Source: Roseivirga sp.
Lineage (GTDB): Bacteria; Bacteroidota; Bacteroidia; Cytophagales; Cyclobacteriaceae
Direction: 5' to 3'
DNA length: 64,000 bases
Assembly (NCBI GenBank): GCA_018402485.1
Contig: JAGYIY010000002.1
Location: 62,001 to 126,000 of the forward strand
A program made the position numbers and the translations under genes. Position 1 is the stretch's first letter, and the number at the start of each line of letters is the position of its first letter. Of this stretch, positions 55,724 to 63,691 are shown in pieces. The notes under the pieces were generated by a model that did not search any database, had not been told where the DNA came from, and was given only the letters and a program-made list of their open reading frames with translations.

Positions 55724-57268
55724 TTACTTATCTATCAATACACGATTTGAACCCGCGGGAGTAATGGCTCTTTTAGCCATTTCCATTGCTCGTGAAGGAA
55801 CCACTCTCGATGGCGTGTAGTACCATTCTGCCACAGCTGCATTTTCCGACAGACTCAATAATAAATAACCATGATCTCGCAGGTTTGCATATTTCAGGTG
55901 GGGGTTAATCTCTGAATTGGTTATTTTATCTTCATGCGCAATGATTACCTCATCGGCAATACCTCTTTCGTTGGTATTCCCTGAATTTACACTGGTTGTG
56001 CCATATTCAACGGCATAAGCTCCTTTCTGAGCATATTCCTGGTTTGGGTCAGCCGTTACTTCTAAAGCCCATGAAGAATGTGTATCGCCTGTAATGAATA
56101 CAATATCCTTAATATTTTCCTGAGCTATGGTTTTCAAAATAATCTCGCGCTCAAGAGGATAACCATCCCAAGAATCCATATTAAAATTAAAAGTAGGATA
56201 GCCCCAATTCAAATAGCTGAAAATGACCTGATTGCCAATGATCTTCCATTGGGCTTTAGAGCCTTTGAGCTCTGCCAAAAACCAATCTAGTTGCTCTTCG
56301 CCCAACATGGTCCGTTCCTCATTCTCAATATCAGGATCTTCTAAGTTGTTAACTGGTTCTGTGCGTCCCACGTAGCGTTCATCAAGAAGTATTAATTCAG
56401 CTAAGTCTCCATATTGAATGGTTCGATAAAGTTGTTTTTGTTCACGAATTGGTAACCATTCATAATAAACCTTTCTGGCTATTTCTTTTCGCGTCATGTA
56501 GTCACCTTCATCTTCTTGATGATTTTCAGCGCCATCCTTAAAAGCATTGTTTGCAATTTCGTGATCGTCCCAAATGGTGAAAAATGGGTGCATTTGATGC
56601 ACCTCTTGCAAATCTTGATCTAATCGATACTGTCCATAACGCGTACGGTAATCTTCAATACTTAGTATTTCATGTTCAGGCAAATGAAAACGACCTGTTG
56701 TGGTATCTCCATATCCTTTGGCACCATATTCGTAAATATAGTCACCTAAGTGAATGACTGCATCGATATCTTCGCGTTCGGCTATTGCACCATAGGCATT
56801 GAAAGGCCCAAATTCGTAGTTGCTACAACTTACAACGGCAAAATTAAGGGGAACATCGGTGGTGCTTTTAGCAGTTTTTGTTCTTCCCACCAAAGAGGGT
56901 TGTCCTTTGTATTCAAACTGATAGAAATAAGTTTCACCCTCATTTAAGTTCTGTACATCAATTTTTGCTGTATAGCCAGAGGCAGGTGTTACCACAATTT
57001 CTCCAGATTGCAATACATCATCAAAGCTTTCGTCTGCACTCATTCTCCATGTTACTAAAGCCTCGGGTAAGCTATCTTCAGGTACTAATTTAGTCCATAT
57101 CACAACAGCAGAAGCAGTAGGGTCACCCGAGGCTACACCATAATAAAAAGGTTTGAGTTGTTGATCGTACAAATGAGCCAACGGATCTTCAACTTTCGGA
57201 TACTTTTCAGAAGGTTGGCAAGCCATTAGAAAACAAAGGAATAAAAGCAGGAGACTAGAGGGCTTCAT
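55724..57268 (-). CDS. phoD: PhoD-like alkaline phosphatase lipoprotein
   Basis: A 514-residue metallophosphoesterase with lipobox LMACQ, so anchored in the envelope. The N-terminal PhoD_N beta domain holds YGVASGDPTASAVVIWTKL; the catalytic part has FAVVSCSNYE, IHLGDYIYEYG, IWDDHEIANN and ITGDTHSSW, the metal ligands of PhoD (Fe/Ca enzyme). It releases phosphate from phosphate esters and diesters outside the cell. No Pho box was recognised. Confidence 0.93.
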   Translation of the reverse strand: MKPSSLLLLFLCFLMACQPSEKYPKVEDPLAHLYDQQLKPFYYGVASGDPTASAVVIWTKLVPEDSLPEALVTWRMSADESFDDVLQSGEIVVTPASGYTAKIDVQNLNEGETYFYQFEYKGQPSLVGRTKTAKSTTDVPLNFAVVSCSNYEFGPFNAYGAIAEREDIDAVIHLGDYIYEYGAKGYGDTTTGRFHLPEHEILSIEDYRTRYGQYRLDQDLQEVHQMHPFFTIWDDHEIANNAFKDGAENHQEDEGDYMTRKEIARKVYYEWLPIREQKQLYRTIQYGDLAELILLDERYVGRTEPVNNLEDPDIENEERTMLGEEQLDWFLAELKGSKAQWKIIGNQVIFSYLNWGYPTFNFNMDSWDGYPLEREIILKTIAQENIKDIVFITGDTHSSWALEVTADPNQEYAQKGAYAVEYGTTSVNSGNTNERGIADEVIIAHEDKITNSEINPHLKYANLRDHGYLLLSLSENAAVAEWYYTPSRVVPSRAMEMAKRAITPAGSNRVLIDK

Positions 57269-57421: not shown

Positions 57422-60400
57422 ATGAAAAAATCTTTTCCATATCTTATGTTAGCCATTCTACTGTGCTGTTTTACTTATTATGCGCAGGCTCAAGATGAGC
57501 TACTGAAAAACTATGAATTTCGTAATGTCGGTCCTTTAAGAGGTGGGCGAGTAACCGCGGTAATGGGCGTTAACGATAAAAAATCTATTTTTTACATGGG
57601 TGCAACAGGCGGGGGTGTCTGGAAAACAACTGATTATGGTATGTCCTGGCGTAACATTTCAGACGGATTTTTCAAAACGCCTTCTATAGGTGCCATTGCC
57701 GTATATCAGAAAAACCCTGATATTCTTTATGTGGGTACAGGTTCTGATGGGCTTCGATCGAATGTAATTGCTGGAAAGGGGGTATACAAATCTACGGATG
57801 AAGGTAAAACCTGGTCATTTGTAGGCTTAAAAAATACGGGCCAAATCGGAGCTGTTGAAATTCACCCAGACAACCCCGATGTTGTTTACGTTGCGGCCAT
57901 CGGACAAGCATTTGGCAACAATGAAGAAAGGGGTGTTTTTAAAACCACAGACGGCGGACAAAGCTGGGAAAAGGTATTATACCATTCAGATAGCATTGGG
58001 TTTTCGGACCTAGAGTTAGCCCCCGATGACCCCGAAACCATTTATGCAGGAGCTTGGAGAGCGCAACGAAAGCCGTGGACCATCATCAGTGGTTCAACAG
58101 AAGGAGGCGTCTATAAGTCTACCGATGGCGGTAAAAATTGGGTGAAACTTACTCAGGGTCTTCCGAATCGATTGATTGGAAAAATTGATTTTGCTGTATC
58201 GGCCAATATACCCAATAGGGTTTATGCCAACATTGAGGCTTCCGATAATCAAGGAGGTTTGTATCGTTCAGATGACAGAGGAGAAACCTGGGAATTTATT
58301 TCAGACAATCCCAACCTGACCAATAGGCCTTTCTATTATACCAATATTTATGCAAACCCAAAAAATGGTAATGTTATTCATAATAATGCTTTAAGGTCTC
58401 TTAAATCTACAGATGGTGGAAAAAACTGGAGTTACATGCGCACACCTCATGGTGATAATCATGATGTATGGATGAACCCGAATGATACGAGTATTTGGAT
58501 TCAATCTAATGATGGAGGTGCAAATGTAACACTCAATAACGGTGAATCTTGGTCAACCCAATTCAACCAACCCACCGCTGAATTATATCAAGTAGAAGTC
58601 GATGATCAATATCCTTACTGGTTATATGCTGGAATGCAAGATAATTATAGCACTATTGCTGTTCCTAGCATGCCGGTGTTGAGCACACAAACCGGTGCAG
58701 ATGCACTTATCCTCAATACAGGAGGGTGCGAAACAGGACCTGCCGTACCGAAGCCGGGCAATCATAATATTGTGTATGCCAACTGTAAAGGACGCTTTGG
58801 TGTCTACGACAAAAGAACAGGCCAAGAATTGCAGTACTATGTAGGTGCAACAAACATCTACGGACACAATCCTAAAGACCTAAAATTCAGATTTCAACGT
58901 GTTGTGCCTATTCATGTATCCCCGCATAATCCGGATGTTGTTTATCATACCTCACAGTATGTCCATAAAACCGTCGATGATGGAAAAACCTGGGAAATCA
59001 TTTCTCCCGACTTGACGGCTTTTGAAGAAGGAAATGGACGTCAGATGGCGTCTGGAGGTCCCATTACCAGAGACGTAACAGGAGAAGAATACTACAGTAC
59101 CATCTATGCCATTCGGGAATCTATGTTGAAGGAAGGATTAATATGGGTTGGTGCCAATGATGGACCTGTTCATGTTACTCGCGATGGTGGGAAAAGTTGG
59201 GACAATGTTACGCCGAATATGCCAAAGGGTGGAAGAGTAGATGCCGTTGAACCTTCTCCACACAATCCTGCCAAAGGCTATGTAAGCATTTTGAGATATC
59301 ATCTTAATGACTACACACCATACATTTACAAAACGGAGGATTATGGCCAAACCTGGGATTTACTTTCTACAGCAGAAAGTGGTTTCCCACAAGACTACCC
59401 AGTGCGTGTTATCCGTGAAGATCCAAAGCGAGAAGGCTTGCTTTTTGCAGGAACAGAGTTCGGTTTATTTATTTCTATGGATGACGGAGAAAGCTGGAGC
59501 CCTTTTCAAAACAACTTACCGATTACCCCAATCACTGATATCAAAATTCATCAGGACGACCTAGTGATGTCTACCATGGGACGTGGTTTTTGGATTTTAG
59601 ATAACTTGGTCAGCCTAAGAAGTATTTCTGATGTTAAAGACCAAGAGGCTCACTTGTTTGAGCCGAAGGATGGATTCAGAAATAGAATGCGTTCAAGTTC
59701 CTCCACTAACGGTCCGGAATATCCTGATATGGGCGTCACCCTCGATTATTATTTGAAAGATGCGGAAAAAGAAGTTCAACTAGATATATTAAATGATAAA
59801 GGCGAAGTCGTACGTAGCTTTGTGAGTGGTAGGCCACCCATGGAAACCAATACGGAAAGAGATATGTCTACTGAATTCAGTAATCCGCCGGCTGCTGGGG
59901 GCTTACCGAACAAGCAAGGGTTCAATCGCTATGTTTGGAACATGAGGCATGCAGGTGGGTGGAGTGCCAATCCAGCACGCGCTTATCGGGGCAATGGTCC
60001 CATGGTTGCTAATGGAGAATTTATGGCTCGACTTAGTGTGGGGGATAAACAGCTAACGCAATCATTCCGTGTAAAAATGGATCCACGTGTTACGATGGTT
60101 GATGATGCTGATGTTGCTGCTCAGACAGCCTTGGCACTTGAAGTACAGCAATTCATGAATGAGGTCAATCAAATGGTAGATAAACTTCAAAAAGAGCGTA
60201 AAGAACTGATCAATAGCTTAGATACAGAACAAGGTAACCGTAAAAAAGAGGCTTTTGACCAAGTTTACTATCGCTTGGTTACAGCTCCTGGTACGTACAT
60301 GCGCCCAATGCTTCAATCGCAAACAGGCTATCTGGGGAGTATGATCGGACGTGCAGATCAACGCCCAGGAAAAGATGCCTACGAAAGGCTTGATGAATTG

Positions 60401-60448
60401 AAGGCAGAATTTGAGCATATAAAAAAGGCATATAAAGATTTAAAGTAA
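57422..60448 (+). CDS. Secreted BNR/sortilin-like beta-propeller protein
   Basis: A 1008-residue exported protein (signal ends near AQAQ). The first 720 residues are two propellers with many Asp-box turns (KTTDYGMSW, KSTDEGKTW, KTTDGGQSW, KSTDGGKNW, RSDDRGETW, SMDDGESW); the C-terminus has a beta domain and a helical tail (VNQMVDKLQKERKEL). It belongs to the VPS10/sortilin-like group of Bacteroidota often labelled glycosyl hydrolase without biochemical proof. It lacks a T9SS tail. It heads a four-gene run with transporter, deacetylase and LytM genes (4-nt gap to the next), which hints at peptide or amino-acid derivative use. Confidence 0.88.
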   Translation: MKKSFPYLMLAILLCCFTYYAQAQDELLKNYEFRNVGPLRGGRVTAVMGVNDKKSIFYMGATGGGVWKTTDYGMSWRNISDGFFKTPSIGAIAVYQKNPDILYVGTGSDGLRSNVIAGKGVYKSTDEGKTWSFVGLKNTGQIGAVEIHPDNPDVVYVAAIGQAFGNNEERGVFKTTDGGQSWEKVLYHSDSIGFSDLELAPDDPETIYAGAWRAQRKPWTIISGSTEGGVYKSTDGGKNWVKLTQGLPNRLIGKIDFAVSANIPNRVYANIEASDNQGGLYRSDDRGETWEFISDNPNLTNRPFYYTNIYANPKNGNVIHNNALRSLKSTDGGKNWSYMRTPHGDNHDVWMNPNDTSIWIQSNDGGANVTLNNGESWSTQFNQPTAELYQVEVDDQYPYWLYAGMQDNYSTIAVPSMPVLSTQTGADALILNTGGCETGPAVPKPGNHNIVYANCKGRFGVYDKRTGQELQYYVGATNIYGHNPKDLKFRFQRVVPIHVSPHNPDVVYHTSQYVHKTVDDGKTWEIISPDLTAFEEGNGRQMASGGPITRDVTGEEYYSTIYAIRESMLKEGLIWVGANDGPVHVTRDGGKSWDNVTPNMPKGGRVDAVEPSPHNPAKGYVSILRYHLNDYTPYIYKTEDYGQTWDLLSTAESGFPQDYPVRVIREDPKREGLLFAGTEFGLFISMDDGESWSPFQNNLPITPITDIKIHQDDLVMSTMGRGFWILDNLVSLRSISDVKDQEAHLFEPKDGFRNRMRSSSSTNGPEYPDMGVTLDYYLKDAEKEVQLDILNDKGEVVRSFVSGRPPMETNTERDMSTEFSNPPAAGGLPNKQGFNRYVWNMRHAGGWSANPARAYRGNGPMVANGEFMARLSVGDKQLTQSFRVKMDPRVTMVDDADVAAQTALALEVQQFMNEVNQMVDKLQKERKELINSLDTEQGNRKKEAFDQVYYRLVTAPGTYMRPMLQSQTGYLGSMIGRADQRPGKDAYERLDELKAEFEHIKKAYKDLK

Positions 60449-60452
60449 GATT

Positions 60453-61853
60453 TTGAAAAGCCCAAAGCTCAACTGTTCACCTAAAATTCCACATCCCATT
60501 GTGATGCTTTTTGGAATTATTGTGCTTATGGCTGTTTTAAGCCATATTATTCCTGCAGGAGCCTATGACCGAGCCTTGGTGAATGGAAGAGAACAAGTTA
60601 TACCAGGGTCTTATCAAGAAATTCCCAATACACCTTTGGGGGTTTTAGATATGTTTTTAGCTATTCCAGGTGGATTTTCTTCCGCCATTGCTATCATTTT
60701 TGTGGTGCTATCAAGTGGAATTATGTTTGGTGTGCTGGAAAAATCTGGCATGATTGAACATGCCGTTGGTACTTTTGTGAAGAAATTGGGACGCGAGCGA
60801 AGAATATTAATTGTTATTCTCATGACTTTCTTGTTCGGCGGGCTAGGTATTTTTGTTGGTTATGAAAATAACATAGCACTCATCCCGATTGCTGCGGTCA
60901 CCAGCTTAGCACTTGGGGGCGATTTGATGTTAGCCGCAGGAATTGCCGTGGGCGGTGTTACGGTGGGTTTTGGTTTATCGCCAGTGAATCCTTATACCGT
61001 TGGAACAGGTCATACACTCGCTGAAATGCCCATGTTTTCAGGAGCTGTCCTGCGATCTACTCTCTGCTTTTCTGCACTTTCCCTATTAGCCTTTTTTAAT
61101 GTAAGGTATTTCAAACAAATCATTGCGCATCCTGAAAAAAGTAGGGCTAAGGGCATTGAAACGCAAGGATTTGAGCTTGCTCAACCGGTAAGTAATTACG
61201 AAATGAGCCGAAAGCATTGGGTAGTTTTAGCTGTTTTTGTAGTGGGTATGGCCATCATGCTTTTTGGTGTCTTCAATTGGCATTGGTACATCAATGAGAT
61301 ATCAGCTATTTTTATTATGATTTCCATTGCAGCAGGAGCAGTGGCGGGGATGTCTGGGAGTACTTTGAGTGAGACTGTTTTGAAATCTGTAGCTGTTGTT
61401 GCTCCGGGTGCATTTATGGTCGGTTTGGCCACAAGCATCAAAGTAGCCATGGAAATGGGCAACATCTCTGATACCATCGCCTTCACTTTATCGCAACAAC
61501 TTCAGGAACTGCCCTTATATTTATCTGCTTTGGCCATGTCTGGGTCACAAAGTATGATTAACTTTTTCATCCCTTCAGGAAGTGGGCAAGCCTTAGCTAC
61601 ATTACCCATTATGATTCCCATTGGTGACCTCATTGGTCTAACACGTCAAACTACGATCTTGGCTTTTCAAGTAGGAGATGGTGTTACCAATTTATTCAAC
61701 CCCACTTTGGGTGGTTTAATCGCCATGCTCGCCATGTGCAGAATACCCTTCGATCGTTGGTTGAAATTTATTATCCCATTGGTATTCATCATTCTAATTA
61801 TGGCTTGGTTATTTTTACTTTTCAGTGTCTTCATTGAATGGGGGCCTGCTTGA
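60453..61853 (+). CDS. YfcC-family C4-dicarboxylate/basic amino acid transporter
   Basis: A 466-residue permease with about 12 helices of the YfcC/ArcD-like family. FPHP-like opening PKIPHPIVMLFGIIVLMAVLSHIIPAGAYDR, then LSPVNPYTVGTGHTLAE and NFFIPSGSGQALATLPIM are diagnostic. The start codon is TTG 60453, 4 nt after the previous stop; no ATG precedes the conserved N-terminus. With argE-like and LytM genes behind it, an amino acid or N-acyl amino acid is a plausible substrate. Confidence 0.9.
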   Translation: MKSPKLNCSPKIPHPIVMLFGIIVLMAVLSHIIPAGAYDRALVNGREQVIPGSYQEIPNTPLGVLDMFLAIPGGFSSAIAIIFVVLSSGIMFGVLEKSGMIEHAVGTFVKKLGRERRILIVILMTFLFGGLGIFVGYENNIALIPIAAVTSLALGGDLMLAAGIAVGGVTVGFGLSPVNPYTVGTGHTLAEMPMFSGAVLRSTLCFSALSLLAFFNVRYFKQIIAHPEKSRAKGIETQGFELAQPVSNYEMSRKHWVVLAVFVVGMAIMLFGVFNWHWYINEISAIFIMISIAAGAVAGMSGSTLSETVLKSVAVVAPGAFMVGLATSIKVAMEMGNISDTIAFTLSQQLQELPLYLSALAMSGSQSMINFFIPSGSGQALATLPIMIPIGDLIGLTRQTTILAFQVGDGVTNLFNPTLGGLIAMLAMCRIPFDRWLKFIIPLVFIILIMAWLFLLFSVFIEWGPA

Positions 61854-61868
61854 TCAAATCAAAAAGAT

Positions 61869-63023
61869 ATGAATGCGCAAGAAATCTTAAGTAAACTCGT
61901 CGCCTTTCCAGTTTTGGGAGGTGAAAGTAATTTATCTATCATCCATTGGATTCAGGAATACATAGAAAATTTAGGGGTTGAGACCTTTTTAGTACCTCAC
62001 CCTGACGGCATGAAAGCTTCCTTACATTGCCGCATTGGTCCTGATGAATCAGGAGGAATTATTCTATCAGGACATACAGATGTTGTACCTGTGGAAGGGC
62101 AAGAATGGCATACCGATCCTTTTGTTTTAACAGACAAAGGAGATGATTTACTTTATGGTAGGGGTTCGTGCGATATGAAAGGCTTCATCGCCTGTTGCCT
62201 TGCAGCCTTGCCTGAAATGGTAAAAGCCGATTTGAAGAAACCTATTTATTTTGCCTTCTCTTACGATGAAGAGGTAGGCTGTTTGGCGGCCCCTGAACTG
62301 GCTGCCACCATCTTTAATCATTATACCCATCGACCGCAATTTGCGATTATTGGTGAACCCACCATGATGATACCAACCGTAGGACAAAAAGGCATTTGTA
62401 TTTATGAAACAACTGTTAGCGGATCAGAAGGTCACAGTAGTAGAATTAAGCAAGAAGTCAGTGCCATTCATGAAACCATGCGCTTAATCCTTTGGTTAGA
62501 AAATAAGATGGATACCTTATTATCTGCCGGGCATACCGATAATCGATTTACACCCAATCATACTTCCATACACATCGGAAAAATTACAGGAGGAATTGCG
62601 CCCAATGTAATCGCCCAAGCCTGCACTTTCATTTGGGATGTGCGTACAATTCCCGGTGAAAAACCAGAAGATATTGCTGCTGATTTTGCTGTTTTTTGCG
62701 AGGAAAGAACAGAAGAGTTGAAAAAGGTTTATCCCGATTTTAAGATTCAAACCTTGCACAGAAACCCTGTTGTTCCTGGTTTAAATACGGACAATGATGC
62801 TGAGATTGTTCAAATAGTAAAGACGGTGGCTCAAAATGATACCCTAGATGCGGTTTCTTACGCATCTGAAGCTGGACAGTTTCAAGAAGCAGGGTTTTCT
62901 TCCATTATCTGCGGCCCCGGTGATATTGCACAAGCCCACAGAGCAAATGAGTTTATAAGCAAAAGACAATTACAAATGGGAGTTGATTTTGTGCATCGAC
63001 TTACAGCATATTGTTGCCAATGA
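61869..63023 (+). CDS. argE: ArgE-like M20 deacetylase
   Basis: A 384-residue zinc amidohydrolase of the M20A family. Metal and catalytic residues are in LSGHTDVVPVEG, GRGSCDMKGFIACCLAAL and FSYDEEVGCLAA, with a dimerisation lid domain in the middle. The best match is acetylornithine deacetylase (ArgE). Its place after a YfcC transporter and away from other arg genes leaves room for another N-acyl amino acid as substrate. Its last bases overlap the LytM gene start as ATGA. Confidence 0.87.
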   Translation: MNAQEILSKLVAFPVLGGESNLSIIHWIQEYIENLGVETFLVPHPDGMKASLHCRIGPDESGGIILSGHTDVVPVEGQEWHTDPFVLTDKGDDLLYGRGSCDMKGFIACCLAALPEMVKADLKKPIYFAFSYDEEVGCLAAPELAATIFNHYTHRPQFAIIGEPTMMIPTVGQKGICIYETTVSGSEGHSSRIKQEVSAIHETMRLILWLENKMDTLLSAGHTDNRFTPNHTSIHIGKITGGIAPNVIAQACTFIWDVRTIPGEKPEDIAADFAVFCEERTEELKKVYPDFKIQTLHRNPVVPGLNTDNDAEIVQIVKTVAQNDTLDAVSYASEAGQFQEAGFSSIICGPGDIAQAHRANEFISKRQLQMGVDFVHRLTAYCCQ

Positions 63024-63691
63024 AAGACCTTCAAGTAAAACTTCAGGAGGCAGGTGTTGCCATTTGTCCCGTGCTCGACTTTCCCTCTTACGCATTTATG
63101 CCCTTAGACTTGAGTATACAACGCGAAGGTATTGGCGATATAGATTGGAATGACAAAAAAGCTTTCAGCAATTTCATTTTCAACCCTTTAAAAACTGCTG
63201 GCAAGGAGGTAGGCTTTGGTGGATACGGCGAGCATAGAAGGTTCTATGAACGGAGTACCTTGTTTGGTGGTGAAGAACCTAGAAGTTTCCATTTAGGACT
63301 TGACCTTTGGGCCAAAGAGGATACCCACGTATTTGCCTCTATTGAAGGCAGAATACACTCTTGGGGAAATCATGCAAGGCATGGTGATTATGGACCAGTA
63401 ATTATCCTAGAGCACCAAATATCAGAAATACACTTTTTTAGTTTATATGGTCATTTATCTCGCAAATCACTTAACGGTTTAGCCATAGGAAAACTGTTTA
63501 AAGCGGGTGATCAAATAGGGACTTTAGGTAAATATGAAGAGAACTTTCACTGGCCACCACATCTTCACCTGCAACTCATAGCTGATATGGAAGGAAAGAT
63601 AGGAGATTATCCGGGAGTCTGTAGAGTGTCTGACAAAGAACATTATCTCAACAATACCTTTGACCCACTTTTTTTCACTGGGCTGCAATAA
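63020..63691 (+). CDS. Cytosolic LytM (M23)-domain protein coupled to argE
   Basis: A 223-residue protein from ATG 63020 without signal peptide or lipobox. The M23 zinc ligands are present: HLGLDLW (His, Asp) and PHLHLQL (His), with SLYGHLSRKSL between. The end GDYPGVCRVSDKEHY after the last ligand matches, as I recall, the middle M23-like domain of phosphotransferase-M23-class III aminotransferase fusion proteins more than cell-wall endopeptidases. Coupling to argE by ATGA supports a cytosolic amino-acid role. Peptidoglycan cleavage is unlikely without export. Confidence 0.82.
   Translation: MKDLQVKLQEAGVAICPVLDFPSYAFMPLDLSIQREGIGDIDWNDKKAFSNFIFNPLKTAGKEVGFGGYGEHRRFYERSTLFGGEEPRSFHLGLDLWAKEDTHVFASIEGRIHSWGNHARHGDYGPVIILEHQISEIHFFSLYGHLSRKSLNGLAIGKLFKAGDQIGTLGKYEENFHWPPHLHLQLIADMEGKIGDYPGVCRVSDKEHYLNNTFDPLFFTGLQ

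What the first reader, a model, noticed from the sequence alone, without database searches (positions are those of the whole stretch)
61869..63691. Cytosolic LytM protein translationally coupled to an ArgE-like enzyme
M23 proteins normally act on cell wall outside the cytoplasm. This one has intact metal ligands but no export signal, its start overlaps the argE stop (ATGA), and its C-terminal pattern recalls the M23 domain of phosphotransferase-aminotransferase fusions. It suggests a non-wall hydrolase role in amino-acid metabolism.
Basis: partly seen in the sequence, partly recalled or inferred. Interest (0 to 1): 0.55.

Follow-up and report, generated by a model that had tools for sequence, protein, structure and literature searches.

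The report
Cytosolic M23 hydrolase family outside the wall
This gene belongs to a widespread, well-conserved branch of a protein family known for cutting bacterial cell walls, but this branch has no export signal and recurs beside or inside amino-acid enzymes and beside transporters, so it probably works inside the cell in amino-acid salvage.

Summary
At 63020-63691 an M23/LytM-fold protein of 223 aa with all five catalytic residues and no export signal starts on an ATGA overlap with the stop of an ArgE-like M20 gene, in a (sortilin-like)-YfcC-M20-M23 run. It is one of a distinct, mostly standalone family (47 of 99 relatives; 88 of 297 Bacteroidota genomes searched). The family has a private signature (GxYxExR...N-x-x-W-P-P-H-L-H-x-Q), and none of 142 standalone members has a hydrophobic N-terminus. 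The ArgE coupling is a shallower fact. It is confined to the genus (Roseivirga), four relatives keep YfcC-M20 without M23, and the M20 is not the biosynthetic ArgE. A second lineage links the family to an operon of Na+ symporter, GNAT, ornithine-racemase-like enzyme, M23, M20 amidohydrolase and alanine racemase. Best reading: a cytosolic zinc amidohydrolase or dipeptidase that frees amino acids, perhaps ornithine- or lysine-like ones, from imported conjugates. Substrate and activity are untested. New variant of a known kind.

The parts
63020..63691 (+). cytosolic M23-family metallohydrolase gene, 223 aa
   Evidence: Pfam M23 49.8 bits; PRK06148 M23 region 113.8 bits; orthologues in 47/99 relatives; AlphaFold model mean pLDDT 92.2; Foldseek best matches are M23 peptidases
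63020..63023 (+). ATGA overlap of M23 start and M20 stop
   Evidence: read directly
63218..63238 (+). family signature GGYxExR, residues 67-73, N-terminal to the catalytic domain
   Evidence: G67, Y69, E71, R73 conserved or nearly so in standalone, short and fused forms
63290..63304 (+). HxGxD motif, residues 91-95: zinc ligands H91 and D95
   Evidence: invariant
63452..63454 (+). catalytic H145 (LYGH)
   Evidence: invariant
63560..63574 (+). HxHxQ, residues 181-185: catalytic H181, zinc ligand H183, family-specific Q185
   Evidence: invariant in the family; the Q185 position is E, G or S in exported controls
61869..63023 (+). ArgE-like M20 metallohydrolase, 384 aa
   Evidence: TIGR01892 385.9 bits (cut-off 297.7) and PRK07522 438.7 (cut-off 412); not in the arginine biosynthesis cluster
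60453..61853 (+). YfcC/DcuC-family transporter, 466 aa
   Evidence: Pfam DcuC 224.9 bits; best NCBIfam match YfcC 214.7 bits, below its cut-off of 500
57422..60448 (+). sortilin/Vps10-like, BNR-repeat protein, 1008 aa; first gene of the run
   Evidence: Pfam Sortilin-Vps10 113.1 bits; conserved in the genus cluster

Best explanation
The gene encodes a cytosolic zinc hydrolase of the M23/LytM fold that has left wall metabolism. It most likely cuts an amide bond in a small imported amino-acid conjugate or dipeptide. In this genus a YfcC-type transporter would bring the substrate in, the M20 enzyme would remove one acyl or amino-acyl group and the M23 enzyme would cut a related bond, releasing free amino acids. 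In the fused form the same hydrolase would feed a small-molecule kinase and a PLP-dependent phospholyase. The associated enzymes hint at ornithine- or lysine-like diamino acids. Shown: fold match, catalytic residues, lack of an N-terminal export signal, gene order, and homology to the fused domain. Inferred: cytosolic activity, amide hydrolysis, pathway order, substrate class.
For: Family-wide lack of a hydrophobic N-terminus against exported controls. Catalytic residues invariant plus a private signature in standalone, short and fused forms. Fused in about 1000-aa proteins with an APH kinase and a class III PLP domain whose best solved relative is ethanolamine-phosphate phospho-lyase (6tor, 490.5 bits). 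Genus operon YfcC-M20-M23. Separate conserved operon: SSF symporter, GNAT, Orr-like racemase, M23, M20 amidohydrolase, alanine racemase, in some loci next to an ornithine aminotransferase. Vibrio plasmid MFS transporter-M23 with a 4-base overlap. The S. meliloti fusion lies downstream of a binding protein closest to Lys/Arg/Orn-binding proteins. No Bacteroidota genome has both a fused and a separate copy (hypergeometric 0.002; phylogeny not corrected).
Against: No activity, substrate or localisation data. Outside the genus and the short-form operon, neighbours are unrelated or housekeeping genes. Four Roseivirga genomes keep YfcC-M20 without M23. The diamino-acid theme rests on family names, one of them below its cut-off (Orr-like, 324 against 480 bits). 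Many M23-bearing genomes lack the kinase-phospholyase protein.
Confidence: 0.55

Rival explanations
1. It is a cytosolic peptidoglycan-recycling peptidase: it trims muropeptides or D-amino-acid dipeptides returned to the cytosol, much as the LAS-type D-Ala-D-Ala dipeptidases VanX/DdpX work inside the cell.
For: M23 chemistry is usually applied to wall peptides; two racemases, including a true alanine racemase, flank the short form; transporters that look POT-like by eye lie near some members.
Against: No recycling genes (ampG, ampD, ldcA, mpl) were recognised in the neighbourhoods inspected; fusion to a kinase and phospholyase has no role in known recycling; patchy distribution (88 of 297 Bacteroidota).
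Confidence: 0.2
2. It is a wall hydrolase after all, released by an unusual export route or by lysis, like phage endolysins that lack signal peptides.
For: Closest folds are wall-active M23 enzymes; weak similarity to phage peptidases and endolysins.
Against: No phage or secretion genes in the genus cluster; family signature and fusion to cytosolic metabolic domains; separated from exported M23 in the tree (support 91, quick tree, long branches).
Confidence: 0.08
3. The ArgE overlap is incidental: M23 works on its own and only landed behind YfcC-M20 in this genus, sharing a transcript but not a pathway.
For: Neighbours outside the genus vary; YfcC-M20 persists without M23 in four genomes and M23 sits elsewhere in two.
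Against: Adjacent in 12 of 14 M23-bearing Roseivirga genomes (one with a gene in between); an unrelated lineage repeats M23 beside an M20 enzyme and a transporter.
Confidence: 0.35
4. A catalytically idle LytM domain used as a binding or regulatory module, as in EnvC or NlpD.
For: Such degenerate M23 domains are common.
Against: All zinc ligands and catalytic histidines invariant in 45 and 93 aligned members.
Confidence: 0.05

Closest known systems
PRK06148 / PRK06149 kinase-M23-class III aminotransferase fusions (NF004799, NF004800)
   Same: M23 domain, its N-terminal extension and signature residues; cytosolic domain partners
   Different: window protein is standalone; own genome shows no kinase-phospholyase protein (genome about 85% complete)
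LytM / lysostaphin-type M23 peptidoglycan peptidases (PF01551)
   Same: fold, HxGxD...H...HxH zinc site
   Different: no export signal, no wall-binding domain, private GxYxExR and N-W-Q signature, metabolic neighbours
VanX / DdpX cytosolic D-Ala-D-Ala dipeptidases (M15; from own knowledge)
   Same: LAS-type zinc enzyme working on a dipeptide inside the cell
   Different: different peptidase family; D-Ala-D-Ala activity not tested here
ETNPPL / PHYKPL phospholyases and hydroxylysine kinase (own knowledge; 6tor by search)
   Same: partners fused to this M23 domain in other genomes
   Different: none is encoded next to the window gene

Membership tests
Peptidase family M23 (PF01551) | score above the curated Pfam cut-off | tested here: met
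   49.8 against 28.7 bits
Peptidase family M23 (PF01551) | zinc ligands H, D, H and two catalytic His | tested here: met
   H91, D95, H183, H145, H181 invariant
Exported M23 wall hydrolases | signal peptide or membrane anchor | tested here: not met
   hydropathy, 0/142 against 9/10 controls
Exported M23 wall hydrolases | peptidoglycan cleavage | not testable with these tools
   needs enzyme assay
PRK06148 fusion family | homologous M23 region including N-terminal extension | tested here: met
PRK06148 fusion family | APH and class III PLP domains in one chain | tested here: not met
   window ORF is 223 aa; curated cut-off 1128 bits not reached
ArgE acetylornithine deacetylase (TIGR01892), upstream gene | score above cut-off | tested here: met
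   385.9 against 297.7 bits
ArgE acetylornithine deacetylase (TIGR01892), upstream gene | role in arginine biosynthesis, judged by gene cluster | tested here: not met
   complete argG-C-D-carbamoyltransferase-B-M20-argH cluster elsewhere with its own M20
Phage endolysin | prophage context | tested here: not met
   metabolic cluster conserved in the genus; no phage genes seen there

The most novel reading that the evidence does not exclude
The family is an unrecognised class of intracellular M23 enzymes with its own small-molecule substrate, a conjugate or dipeptide of an ornithine-, lysine- or hydroxylysine-like diamino acid, used as a free enzyme or as the middle domain of a hydrolase-kinase-phospholyase catabolic protein.
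Probability: 0.3. Interest if true: 0.75.

Novelty: new variant of a known kind. Interest (0 to 1): 0.52.

Why it matters
M23 enzymes are reviewed as peptidoglycan hydrolases; the word aminotransferase does not occur in the main text of the 2022 review of the family (PMC9662197). A large, conserved cytosolic branch would add a metabolic role to the fold, correct automatic names such as 'peptidoglycan DD-metalloendopeptidase', and explain why kinase-phospholyase proteins carry this domain.

Tried and rejected
Literature searches found no paper on the fusions or on a cytosolic M23 family; the 2012 hydroxylysine kinase/phospholyase paper is not held. Co-occurrence of the standalone gene with the M23-less kinase-phospholyase protein is weak (13 of 19; Fisher p 0.03) and inflated by shared ancestry, so it is not relied on. 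No solved structure resembles the kinase domain by sequence at the threshold used. SnoaL-like neighbours occur in two lineages but belong to a common superfamily. The careful tree did not finish; only the quick tree is used. Active-site distances of the signature residues could not be measured because model coordinates are not exposed.

Full report
Observation. The window carries, on the + strand, a sortilin/Vps10-like protein (57422-60448), a YfcC/DcuC-family transporter (60453-61853), an ArgE-like M20 enzyme (61869-63023) and an M23 protein whose ATG at 63020 overlaps the M20 stop as ATGA. Gaps between the last three genes are 15 bases and minus 4. The M23 assignment is firm (Pfam 49.8 bits). 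The best curated model is not a wall enzyme but PRK06148, the kinase-M23-aminotransferase fusion, at 113.8 bits over positions 400-570.

A distinct family. In 99 relatives, 47 genomes hold a strong homologue; 45 are standalone and two lie inside fusions of 1025 and 989 aa. Two same-genus contigs were also found under record titles that name them Roseivirga (contig lengths agree). In 297 Bacteroidota genomes, 88 have the family: 26 in frames above 900 aa, 18 as short forms of about 200 aa, the rest standalone. Each genome has one copy; none has both fused and separate copies (hypergeometric 0.002, not corrected for phylogeny).

Signature. H91, D95, H145, H181 and H183 are invariant in 71 standalone, 15 short and 7 fused members. 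G67, Y69, E71, R73, R88, Y124, N175, W178 (W or Y), Q185 and P216 are conserved or nearly so. Exported controls carry A/S/L at 175 and E/G/S at 185; their N-terminal parts were not aligned, so the GxYxExR motif is not compared there. The signature spans the linker before the M23 domain in the fusions, so homology covers more than the catalytic core.

Cell location. None of 142 standalone members (a few are duplicate fetches) has a hydrophobic stretch with mean hydropathy above 2 in the first 70 residues; 9 of 10 other M23 proteins from related genomes do. The fusion partners are cytosolic enzyme types. This supports cytosolic location but is not an experiment.

Structure. The AlphaFold model has mean pLDDT 92.2 and pTM 0.90. 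Foldseek's significant matches are M23 proteins, with TM-scores of about 0.65-0.70 on the small LytM, lysostaphin and EnpA domains and about 0.4 on the query, as expected for an M23 core with added elements.

Tree. A quick maximum-likelihood tree puts the family apart from exported M23 controls (91), the fusions in one group (90), the short forms in one group, and the window protein with its genus (80). Branches are long and the careful search did not finish, so this is supporting evidence only.

The ArgE link. YfcC and the M20 gene are in 18 of 19 genomes of the genus. M23 is in 14, next to M20 in 12 (one with a gene in between), elsewhere in G008 and G009, and missing in G004, G006, G007 and G014, which keep YfcC-M20; G001 lacks all three. 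Outside the genus M23 has other neighbours. The M20 gene scores as acetylornithine deacetylase, but the genome has a complete arginine cluster with its own M20 gene elsewhere. So translational coupling is real but lineage-specific and dispensable, and the partner is probably a salvage enzyme.

A second, independent context. The short forms sit in a conserved operon of sodium symporter (in 13 of 15 loci), GNAT acetyltransferase, Orr-like racemase, M23, M20 amidohydrolase and alanine racemase, in some loci beside an ornithine aminotransferase. A Vibrio plasmid member (39% identity) overlaps an MFS transporter by four bases. The S. meliloti fusion is downstream of a binding protein closest to Lys/Arg/Orn-binding proteins, a permease-like protein and an SDR-like protein, the last two named by eye. 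The fusion's PLP domain is closest to ethanolamine-phosphate phospho-lyase.

Mechanism. I infer a cytosolic zinc amidohydrolase or dipeptidase that works after uptake and alongside an M20 enzyme, releasing amino acids, perhaps of the ornithine/lysine type. The hydrolase chemistry follows from the invariant M23 site; pathway and substrate are inference from context. The main rivals are a role in cytosolic recycling of wall peptides and a chance placement behind M20.

Novelty. The fold and the fusion models are known; a cytosolic, mostly standalone metabolic branch is not described in the papers that could be searched. I rate it a new variant of a known kind.

Noticed in passing
L172-L186 (short-form loci): Conserved operon of SSF symporter, GNAT, ornithine-racemase-like protein, short M23, M20 amidohydrolase and alanine racemase; looks like an undescribed D- or diamino-acid conjugate pathway.
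   Followed up: partly
G034, G046, G010, G013 and others: Kinase-phospholyase proteins of about 750-790 aa lacking the M23 domain, often in genomes with a separate M23; the domain was lost from or gained by the fusion.
   Followed up: partly
L188 (G131:C1:3914516-3915754): A 422-aa family member in which the N-terminal part and the catalytic part are separated by a long insertion.
   Followed up: no
L162 7815-8486 (Vibrio tritonius plasmid pMA35): Family member outside Bacteroidota, overlapping an MFS transporter by four bases, annotated as peptidoglycan DD-metalloendopeptidase.
   Followed up: partly
window 55724-57268 (-): 514-aa lipoprotein-like ORF resembling PhoD-type alkaline phosphatase by eye; not searched.
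   Followed up: no
L049 6258-6644 and L093 8684-9160: SnoaL-like proteins of different subfamilies lie near M23 in Roseivirga and Flavobacterium.
   Followed up: partly
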